Virus record (IMG/VR): IMGVR_UViG_3300030104_005222
Span: 49,133-73,173 of that record
From: a virus
Strand: one strand, 5' to 3'
DNA: 24,041 bases
Positions within the stretch are counted from its first letter, which is position 1; the number at the start of each line of letters is the position of its first letter. This document shows, piece by piece, positions 20,044-21,651 of the stretch. The notes below the pieces were generated by a model. It ran no database searches. It was given only the letters and a program-made list of their open reading frames with translations, and was not told where the DNA came from. The position numbers were made by a program, and so were the translations under genes.

Positions 20044-20130
20044 TGGTGCTTGAGGCGGGACTCGAACCCGCATGGCTGTGATGCCGGGAGATTTTAAGTC
20101 TCCTGTGTCTACCGGTTCCACCACTCAAGC
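20044..20130 (-). tRNA. tRNA-Leu (anticodon UAA), CCA encoded
   Basis: The minus strand folds as a type II tRNA. The acceptor arms are GCTTGAG and CTCAAGC (7 pairs), and the D-arm region includes GGTGGAACCGGTAGACAC. The anticodon stem GGAGA/TCTCC encloses loop CTTAAAA (anticodon TAA). A long variable arm has a GGC/GCC stem, and the T arm is GCGGGTTCGAGTCCCGC. The discriminator A is followed by an encoded CCA (20044-20046). It reads TTA and TTG leucine codons. It is transcribed with the leftward small-gene block, between a repeat-rich gap and the zinc-finger gene. Confidence 0.95.
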
Positions 20131-20132
20131 AT

Positions 20133-20240
20133 GTGAAGGGGAGTGGGTTGGTCTGGCAAGGCGAGGTTGGGGTTGAGGTGAAAGAAGAAAAGTGTGGGGT
20201 GAAGGGGAATGGCCTGGGTTGGTCTGGCGAGTCGAGGAAT
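20133..20240 (-). repeat. Direct repeats in a C-rich, G-poor untranslated gap
   Basis: The gap 20131-20301 between the RAMP-like gene and the tRNA holds two direct repeat units, given as plus strand. GTGAAGGGGA occurs at 20133-20142 and 20199-20208, and GGGTTGGTCTGGC at 20145-20157 and 20216-20228. AAAGTGTGG lies between them. On the transcribed minus strand this is rich in C and U and very poor in G. A related pair lies at 21473-21602. An inverted pair GCCAGG/CCTGGC lies at 20268-20290, just after the RAMP-like gene. No open frame of value is seen in the gap. Confidence 0.65.
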
Positions 20241-20301
20241 GTTACGGTAGGGTGCGGGCCGAGAGGTGCCAGGTTGTTATGGTGCCTGGCTCACCGAAAG
20301 T

Positions 20302-20922
20302 TTATGCAGCCTTGCGTTTGGGGTACTTGCCTTTGGCGTCTTGGACCTCAACGCTGAAGCGACCGAAGCCGTAGCCACGACTTGCTCCAATGCCACAGAA
20401 GTTTCCTGACTGGGTGATGAAGTGGATGATGTCATCGCGGTTCATCTTGTCGTTGCCGGAGTAGTTGATTGTAAATTCGCAGGACCATTCGGGTACGATT
20501 GCACGAGTGGTGGGCACTTGTACCATGCCGCTCTTCATGATCGAATCGTATCGATAACGAGGATCGTTTGCGATTTCGTCGAGGTCGTCGGAACCACCGT
20601 GGATGAGCTTGGCTGGACCGGCGATGATGGCGTAACGTTTACAGTTAGCTCCCATGCGGTCAAGCTTTGCACCGTCAATAAAGGCGGCGCGCAAGTTAGC
20701 GGCGGGGATATAAAGACCGAGTTCCTTATTCCAATAAAGACCGGCTTTGACACGTAGGATGGACTGTTTTTCAAGGATTGCGTCGACGTCTGCGCCTTTG
20801 CGCTTGGAGGCCTTGTGCAATTCCTTGAGCCGCTTGGCGTATTCGTTGCGGGGATCGGCAGTCTGGTTGTTGTCCATCATGAGAGGCCCGCGTCCGGTGA
20901 TACGAAATGTAATTGATTTCAT
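20302..20922 (-). CDS. RAMP/Cas7-like phage protein
   Basis: 206 residues. The N-terminal strand and loop ITFRITGRGPLMMDNNQTAD (4-23) is followed by NEYAKRLKELHKASKRKG. Then come LYWNKELGLYIPAANLRAAF (62-81), RTRAIVPEWSCEF-like strands around 138-150, and a C-terminal glycine-rich loop GIGASRGYGFGRFSVEV (177-193). IPAANLRAAF recalls the IPGSSLKGAlR of CRISPR RAMP proteins, and the G.G..RGYGFGRF loop recalls the RAMP glycine-rich loop. A family of phage proteins with this plan (PLxM.N..ADP...Y.P..NL..A...GAK...GlG..R..fGrF) is widespread and unnamed. No cas gene or repeat array is nearby. GGAG lies 7 bases before the ATG. An RNA- or DNA-binding role is an inference from the fold resemblance. 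Confidence 0.75.
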   Translation of the reverse strand: MKSITFRITGRGPLMMDNNQTADPRNEYAKRLKELHKASKRKGADVDAILEKQSILRVKAGLYWNKELGLYIPAANLRAAFIDGAKLDRMGANCKRYAIIAGPAKLIHGGSDDLDEIANDPRYRYDSIMKSGMVQVPTTRAIVPEWSCEFTINYSGNDKMNRDDIIHFITQSGNFCGIGASRGYGFGRFSVEVQDAKGKYPKRKAA

Positions 20923-20925
20923 GGG

Positions 20926-21462
20926 TTACTCCGAGAAAGTTTGGTCGGGGATGATGATGTTGGGTTTGGTCTCGAGTGTGATCCGTTCGCGTGCGGCGTC
21001 ACGCATTGCCTGTTGGGCGGACCCCTCAAGTGCACCGAGGCGAACCTGGTGATTGATTTTGCGGCGACGTTCCTGCATGTCGAGGTCGGAGTCGCGAGTC
21101 TTTTCGAGGATGCGGGAGCTTTTGCGGATCGCTTTGACGATGTCACGGGTAGCGGTGGTTGAAGCGTAGTCAATGTTCTCGGCGGGGCGAAGGATCTCAA
21201 AGCCATAGCCGTAGACGGTGCGAGGGAAACGTCCGGTCTCTTCGAGGATGCGTTCGCGCCATGTCTCGCGCAGGTACATTAGGTTTAGGGACCATGACTG
21301 ATGATCGGCGACTGGTTGGTCGTCAGTTGGTGGAGTCAACTGGGACATTGCGATGAGGTCATCGCTGCTGAGTGTGTAGCTGTCGGGTTGTGATTGTAAG
21401 AGTTCGGTGGTTGCCGATACGGCAAGCTCGATAGCGGTGGTTACTTGGCTTTGGGTGTACAT
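20926..21462 (-). CDS. Hypothetical regulator-like helical protein
   Basis: 178 residues from the ATG at 21462, MYTQSQVTTAIELAVSATTE. A middle section, WRERILEETGRFPRTVYGYG then FEILRPAENIDYASTTATRD, is followed by basic helices IVKAIRKSSRILEKTRDSDL and ERRRKINHQVRLGALEGSAQ. The GYGFEILRPAEN...IVKAIRK section matches a recurrent phage family, usually next to regulators, whose function I cannot name. The ribosome site is weak (GGA 6 bases upstream). The upstream in-frame extension is a proline/serine-rich translation of the repeat gap, so I reject it. It ends 3 bases before the RAMP-like gene; the two are almost certainly co-expressed. Confidence 0.7.
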   Translation of the reverse strand: MYTQSQVTTAIELAVSATTELLQSQPDSYTLSSDDLIAMSQLTPPTDDQPVADHQSWSLNLMYLRETWRERILEETGRFPRTVYGYGFEILRPAENIDYASTTATRDIVKAIRKSSRILEKTRDSDLDMQERRRKINHQVRLGALEGSAQQAMRDAARERITLETKPNIIIPDQTFSE

Positions 21463-21472
21463 GAGTATCCAT

Positions 21473-21602
21473 GGTTGGGGTGATAAAAAGTGTGGTAGGG
21501 AAAGGTCTGAGCTGAGTAGGACAGGATAGGTGTGTGCTGGTTCGAGGCGGAGAGAAAGAAAGTGTGGGTGGGTGTGGGAAGGTCTGGGCTGGCACGAGGT
21601 GG
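21473..21602 (-). repeat. Second C-rich, G-poor repeat pair in an untranslated gap
   Basis: The gap 21463-21651 holds two diverged units, given as plus strand: AAAAGTGTGG (21486-21495) followed by GGTCTGAGCTG (21504-21514), and AAAGAAAGTGTGGG (21555-21568) followed by GGTCTGGGCTGGC (21581-21593). The same order, AAAGTGTGG then GGTCTGG, occurs at 20181-20228. An inverted pair GCAGGGT/ACCCTGC surrounds 21608-21639. On the transcribed strand the gap is C/U-rich and G-poor, like the gap at 20131-20301. No protein frame is credible. Confidence 0.6.
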
Positions 21603-21651
21603 AGAGTTGCAGGGTTTTGGTGCGTCTGGATGACCCTGCGAACCACAAGGA

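What the first reader, a model, noticed from the sequence alone, without database searches (positions are those of the whole stretch)
20302..21462. RAMP/Cas7-like protein with a coupled partner, outside any CRISPR locus
The protein at 20302-20922 combines GRGPLMMDN, YIPAANLRAA and GIGASRGYGFGRF, which in order resemble the N-terminal strand, the IPGSSLKGAlR segment and the glycine-rich loop of CRISPR RAMP proteins. There is no array, cas1/2 or effector around it. A regulator-like protein begins the same transcript 3 bases upstream, and both genes are flanked by unusual repeat gaps. It may be a phage RNA-binding, anti-CRISPR or RNA-processing device built from a Cas7-type fold. The resemblance is by motif only.
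Basis: partly seen in the sequence, partly recalled or inferred. Interest (0 to 1): 0.7.

Follow-up and report, generated by a model that had tools for sequence, protein, structure and literature searches.

The report
Phage VIPR system with variant guide repeats
A virus of bacteria carries a small CRISPR-like protein, its helper gene and stretches of five-base-repeat DNA that probably make guide RNAs; together they match the VIPR phage-versus-phage weapon reported in 2026, but with a different repeat spelling.

Summary
It is a Vipr protein. It matches the solved SUSP1 Vipr (PDB 36pp) at E=7e-19. Its AlphaFold model (pLDDT 93.7) matches Csm3/Cmr/type VII Cas7 chains. The partner (20926-21462) is homologous to the Vipr-accessory protein next to SUSP1 vipr (hhalign 97%). 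The "unusual repeat gaps" are arrays of 5-nt repeats, the mark of VIPR guide RNAs (period 5 only, z=22). So this is a VIPR locus (preprint PMC13142463): RNA-guided, non-contiguous DNA recognition used in conflict between phages, not an anti-CRISPR or RNA-processing device. What differs here: gene order is vap then vipr; on the coding strand the repeats read C-C-(A/T/G)-N-N, not GGY-NN (78 of 80 loci of another clade have GGY in sense, none in antisense); the last tract ends 1 nt from a tRNA-Leu. Tract-to-3'-tail polarity favours a sense-strand, C-based code, but an antisense GG array is not excluded. A related phage lacks the module at the same site. No target was found. The preprint allows "related consensus" types that I could not inspect, so novelty is moderate.

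The parts
20302..20922 (-). vipr: Cas7/RAMP-like protein, 206 aa (phrog_4652)
   Evidence: phmmer vs PDB 36pp SUSP1 Vipr 7e-19; profile 2e-65; AF2 pLDDT 93.7, Foldseek top hits Cas7-type; dN/dS about 0.07-0.1
20926..21462 (-). vap: accessory protein, 178 aa (phrog_5926), upstream of vipr
   Evidence: phrog_5926 1e-10, all 25 aligned partners match it; hhalign with an alignment containing the SUSP1 partner 97.2%, E 4e-11; AF2 pLDDT 90.2
21563..21602 (-). vrRNA repeat tract D (8 units of 5 nt, sense strand C-C-D-N-N)
21491..21555 (-). vrRNA repeat tract C (13 units), ends CCACA then tail CTTTTTATC, directly upstream of vap
20193..20262 (-). vrRNA repeat tract B (14 units), ends CCACA then tail CTTTTCTTC
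20132..20181 (-). vrRNA repeat tract A (10 units), ends TCACA, 1 nt before the tRNA
20044..20130 (-). tRNA-Leu(TAA) abutting the 3' end (sense) of the last tract; candidate RNase P-defined guide end
   Evidence: ARAGORN, Rfam tRNA 57.3 bits
21608..21648 (-). hairpin/pseudoknot-like intergenic element between the DUF932-like gene and the array; also in phages without VIPR
   Evidence: no Rfam match
20266..20300 (-). second, divergent hairpin element after the vipr stop codon

Best explanation
This is a phage VIPR system. Shown here: a Vipr-family RAMP protein, a vap partner and four flanking 5-nt-repeat tracts. Inferred from the SUSP1 work: the tracts are transcribed and processed to short guide RNAs (vrRNAs). 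Vipr subunits polymerise on the RNA, one per 5-nt unit. They hold the conserved bases and expose the two variable bases (NN) of each unit, which pair with double-stranded DNA at NN-x-NN-x-NN and block transcription of competing phages or satellites, helped by the DNA-binding-like vap. Also inferred, with less certainty (about 0.7): in this clade the guides are on the same strand as the genes and the protein-read bases are C-C-(A/T/G) instead of GGY; the last guide's 3' end is set by RNase P cutting at the adjoining tRNA-Leu.
For: P0001 matches SUSP1 Vipr, PDB 36pp, at 7e-19, and the family profile at 2e-65; 29% identity to the SUSP1 gene product. Fold is Cas7-type. Partner is homologous to the SUSP1 partner. 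The six gaps of window, L001 and L002 together show period 5 and no other period (z=22.3 against z of at most 1.9 for the other periods from 3 to 9); the second C is 99% conserved over 148 units and the last two positions are near-random (entropy 1.96 and 1.90 bits). My tract finder recovers one upstream and three downstream tracts in SUSP1, as the preprint reports, and tracts in 78 of 80 loci of the LESphi2 clade. Polarity: in the sense reading, tracts end with a conserved unit (last-unit identity 0.71 vs 0.48 for random units) and a conserved 3' flank (0.40 vs 0.32 +/- 0.014 shuffled); the 5' flank is not conserved (0.27 vs 0.28). SUSP1 and LESphi2-clade tracts show the same order. Strong purifying selection on vipr.
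Against: No transcript data. GGY/NN, the hallmark of the characterised types, is absent on the sense strand. No natural target was found in the own genome or, by exact nine-unit patterns, in viral contigs (the single hit is at the level I expect by chance). Strand and register of the guide rest on analogy and on only three loci.
Confidence: 0.92

Rival explanations
1. Same VIPR system, but the guide RNAs are transcribed antisense to the vipr operon and keep the GG-type consensus (GG-N-N-N on the + strand).
For: G-rich units read on the + strand: G 98%, G 75%. Arg140, invariant in GGY-clade Viprs and lost in the GCA clade, is kept in the window clade.
Against: None of the 80 LESphi2-clade loci has an antisense array. 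The conserved flank and the conserved end unit would then sit at the 5' end, opposite to SUSP1. No promoter-like site on the + strand near the arrays. The third position is not clearly Y.
Confidence: 0.22
2. An orphan Cas7-like protein co-opted as an anti-CRISPR, with the repeats serving as a decoy or being unrelated.
For: Phages are known to carry solitary cas homologues acting as anti-CRISPRs (own knowledge, not checked here). No CRISPR locus nearby.
Against: Direct homology to Vipr rather than to any Cas family above its cut-off. Conserved vap partner and 5-nt arrays across many phages.
Confidence: 0.03
3. A decaying VIPR remnant whose repeats have drifted from GGY.
For: Looser first position (C 68%, T 22%) than GGY clades. 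No target found.
Against: vipr dN about 0.13-0.16 against dS above 1.2. One position 99% conserved over 148 units in three diverged phages.
Confidence: 0.05

Closest known systems
VIPR system of Escherichia phage SUSP1 (type II; PMC13142463; PDB 36pp)
   Same: Homologous Vipr (29% identity), homologous partner, 5-nt repeat tracts in both flanking gaps, tract then conserved 3' end, phage genome, no CRISPR genes
   Different: vap precedes vipr; repeat reads CC(A/T/G)NN on the sense strand instead of GGYNN; short pyrimidine-rich tails instead of a pseudoknot tail; a tRNA closes the last array; His17 of GGY-clade Viprs is replaced
VIPR-like loci of phiHSIC and Vibrio phage 1.266.O
   Same: Vipr homologue plus partner plus 5-nt arrays, and a non-GGY consensus (GCA-NN)
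   Different: Consensus GCA-NN in sense; gene order vipr then partner
VIPR-like loci of actinophages Trine, MakoManhole, LittleE, prophiBWHA-1
   Same: Vipr homologue plus arrays; tRNA-type structure adjoining tracts
   Different: Sense GGC/GGY-NN repeats; truncated tRNA-like elements rather than a whole tRNA
Class 1 CRISPR Cas7 (Csm3, Cmr4, type VII Cas7)
   Same: Fold and glycine-rich loop
   Different: No CRISPR array, Cas1 or other effector subunits; sequence below family cut-offs

Membership tests
VIPR | Vipr protein: RAMP/RRM-type fold with G-loop, in the Vipr clade | tested here: met
   PDB 36pp 7e-19, AF2/Foldseek
VIPR | Adjacent vap gene | tested here: met
   hhalign 97.2%, E 4e-11 with an alignment holding the SUSP1 partner
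VIPR | Tandem pentanucleotide repeats with alternating conserved and variable bases in long flanking gaps | tested here: met
   Period 5 z=22.3; 148 units, 8-14 per tract
VIPR | GGY/NN motif or a related consensus | tested here: inconclusive
   Sense strand CC(A/T/G)NN, antisense GG-NNN; the preprint allows a related consensus (fig. S17, not readable here)
VIPR | Invariable 3' tail after the tract | tested here: met
   Conserved CCACA + CTTTC/CAGTGTCTCTCC on the 3' side in the sense reading, 5' side not conserved; no pseudoknot tail seen
VIPR | No CRISPR array or cas genes; virus-encoded | tested here: met
   IMG/VR virus record of 73,173 bases
VIPR | vrRNA expressed and bound by Vipr | not testable with these tools
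   needs sRNA-seq and pull-down
VIPR | Targets match under the 1-nt skip rule | tested here: inconclusive
   No match above shuffles in the own genome; four exact nine-unit scans of viral contigs gave one chance-level hit
CRISPR class 1 RAMP (Cas5/6/7) | Score above a Cas family cut-off | tested here: not met
   Pfam RAMPs 14.9 of 22.1 bits; NCBIfam Csm4 14.2 of 55
CRISPR class 1 RAMP (Cas5/6/7) | CRISPR locus context | tested here: not met
CRISPR class 1 RAMP (Cas5/6/7) | Cas7-type fold | tested here: met
   Foldseek E 3e-5 to 4e-4, probability about 1.00
Anti-CRISPR | Inhibits a CRISPR-Cas system | not testable with these tools
   needs a plaque or interference assay

The most novel reading that the evidence does not exclude
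A VIPR variant whose guide RNAs use a C-based spacing code (CC(A/T/G)/NN) read by a Vipr with altered base-reading residues, with the last guide released by tRNA processing: the protein-read half of the guide code can be rewritten (GGY, GCA, CCD) while the 5-nt step stays fixed.
Probability: 0.6. Interest if true: 0.72.

Novelty: new variant of a known kind. Interest (0 to 1): 0.62.

Why it matters
VIPR is the proposed ancestor of CRISPR effector backbones and is known experimentally from very few systems. A clade that keeps the 5-nt step but changes the bases gripped by the protein would show that the scaffold half of the code is evolvable. It would also offer a natural set (GGY, GCA, CCD) for finding the residues that read it. 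A related phage lacks the module at the same site, so gain or loss of the weapon can be studied.

Tried and rejected
The hairpin after each stop codon looked at first like the 3' tail of an antisense guide. A scan of viral contigs showed it is an intergenic element also present in phages with no VIPR at that place, so it was dropped as a tail. Rfam found nothing for the gaps. The whole-family alignment could not be used for collection scans. The window clade was not found in genome contigs and only twice in viral contigs. P0002 had no tblastn hit in phages although profiles find it. Guide-target searches gave nothing convincing. A possible change of thumb residues (K38-D43) was discarded as a likely alignment slip of one residue. 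The tRNA-like elements could not be aligned cleanly across all four actinophages.

Full report
What is there. The window is positions 49133-73173 of a 73,173-base IMG/VR virus record. The finding's two ORFs are real and on the minus strand. With ordinary libraries the 206-aa protein looks like a hint of a RAMP: Pfam RAMPs E=0.037, confined to the C-terminal glycine-loop part, and Csm4/Cas6 at E 0.02-0.03 or 0.001-0.02 in PADLOC. It belongs to phrog_4652, function unknown. 128 phage records encode a homologue, among them Felixounavirus and Suspvirus, P. aeruginosa LESphi2, Medea1, phiHSIC, Vibrio 1.266.O and actinophages.

The gaps. In every relative inspected the vipr homologue has a partner gene beside it or nearby, and the gaps hold strings with a 5-nt period. 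A literature search for pentanucleotide repeats in phages led to PMC13142463. It describes VIPR: a phage-encoded ancestral RAMP (Vipr), an accessory gene (vap) and guide RNAs made of 9-16 YNNGG units followed by a 3' tail. These recognise double-stranded DNA with a 1-nt skip. The reference phage, SUSP1, is one of our hits, and the PDB copy holds its Vipr (36pp), which P0001 matches at 7e-19 and the family profile at 2e-65.

Fold. The AlphaFold model has mean pLDDT 93.7, pTM 0.86. Its best PDB matches are Cmr, Csm3, type VII and type IV Cas7-type chains (Foldseek probability about 1.00, E 3e-5 to 4e-4; that library ends in April 2026 and no Vipr entry is among the 50 matches listed). The partner model (pLDDT 90.2) only weakly resembles winged-helix regulators (best E 0.13), so 'DNA-binding' is a lean, not a result. 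The partner is homologous to the SUSP1-type partner by profile comparison.

Repeat arrays, tested. A GGY tract scan recovers one upstream and three downstream tracts in SUSP1, as the preprint says. In 80 viral contigs of the LESphi2 clade (not all independent), 78 carry sense-strand tracts and none antisense; shuffled loci gave one tract in all. Their profile is G93 G81 Y90 N N over 167 distinct tracts; phiHSIC and Vibrio 1.266.O give GCA-NN. For the window and its two 80%-identical relatives (L001, L002), an unbiased period model finds period 5 at z=22.3 and nothing comparable at 3, 4 or 6-9. Read on the gene strand, 148 units give C68/T22, C99, A47/T26/G18, N, N. GGY scans see these tracts only on the opposite strand.

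Which strand? In the sense reading the tract ends in a conserved unit (CCACA) and runs straight into a conserved stretch (CTTTC... or CAGTGTCTCTCC), while the 5' side is not conserved. This is the tract-then-tail order of SUSP1. It also preserves the order strong-strong-weaker-N-N seen in GGY and GCA arrays, and places a tRNA-Leu 1 nt after the last tract, where RNase P would make the guide's end. The antisense reading keeps GG but reverses polarity. I favour sense (about 0.7). His17, invariant in 23 GGY-clade Viprs, is D/D/C in the window clade and N in the GCA clade, a lead to a base-reading residue, not a proof.

Context. vipr is under strong purifying selection (dN 0.13-0.16, dS above 1.2; dS is near saturation). 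Contig L098, a syntenic relative (DUF932-like protein 78% identical, neighbouring genes 30-48%), has the same intergenic element at this site but a different 126-aa ORF and no vipr or vap hit in the 9.6 kb examined, so VIPR looks like replaceable cargo. A neighbouring gene matches mycobacteriophage L5 gp82, which suggests, weakly, an actinobacterial host.

Targets. Under the skip rule no tract matches the own genome or the other loci searched clearly better than shuffled guides. Four nine-unit exact scans of viral contigs gave one hit; beyond the 18 bases selected for, it matches 3 of the 6 remaining guide bases, as chance would give. About one chance hit per scan is my own estimate, as the collection's total size was not given.

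Verdict. A real VIPR locus: the kind has been known since 2026. The altered repeat consensus, gene order and tRNA end make it a variant; I could not read the preprint's supplement to see whether it is already among the seven types.

Noticed in passing
L007:5579-5852, L120:1600-3510, L121:1800-2000, L122:1635-3240 (Gordonia phages Trine and MakoManhole, Mycobacterium phages LittleE and prophiBWHA-1): VIPR tracts are flanked by short tRNA-like elements (acceptor-like stem plus GTTCGAxT T-arm; weak match to mascRNA, E 0.04-0.3, in Trine), whose stems differ in sequence but still pair. They may be RNase P processing points for guide arrays; not mentioned in the preprint's main text.
   Followed up: partly
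window 21608-21648 and 20266-20300 (minus); L096, L098, L105, L107, L114, L117: A hairpin, possibly pseudoknotted, intergenic element (TTGTGGTTCGCMGGGTCATCC..AAAACCCKGC) recurs in several viral contigs between a stop codon or tRNA and the next start codon; no Rfam family matches.
   Followed up: partly
L098:3188-3805: Related phage with an unrelated 126-aa ORF where the window has the VIPR module; a natural VIPR-free site for comparison.
   Followed up: partly
L006:5584-5928, L008:4766-5836: phiHSIC and Vibrio phage 1.266.O arrays use GCA-NN rather than GGY-NN (G96 C87 A94).
   Followed up: partly
window 20193-20262, 20132-20181 and the first tract after vipr in L001: Tract B of the window and the first L001 tract share five consecutive variable dinucleotides (CG CG GA AC GG), and tract A shares part of them; they may have a common conserved target.
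   Followed up: partly
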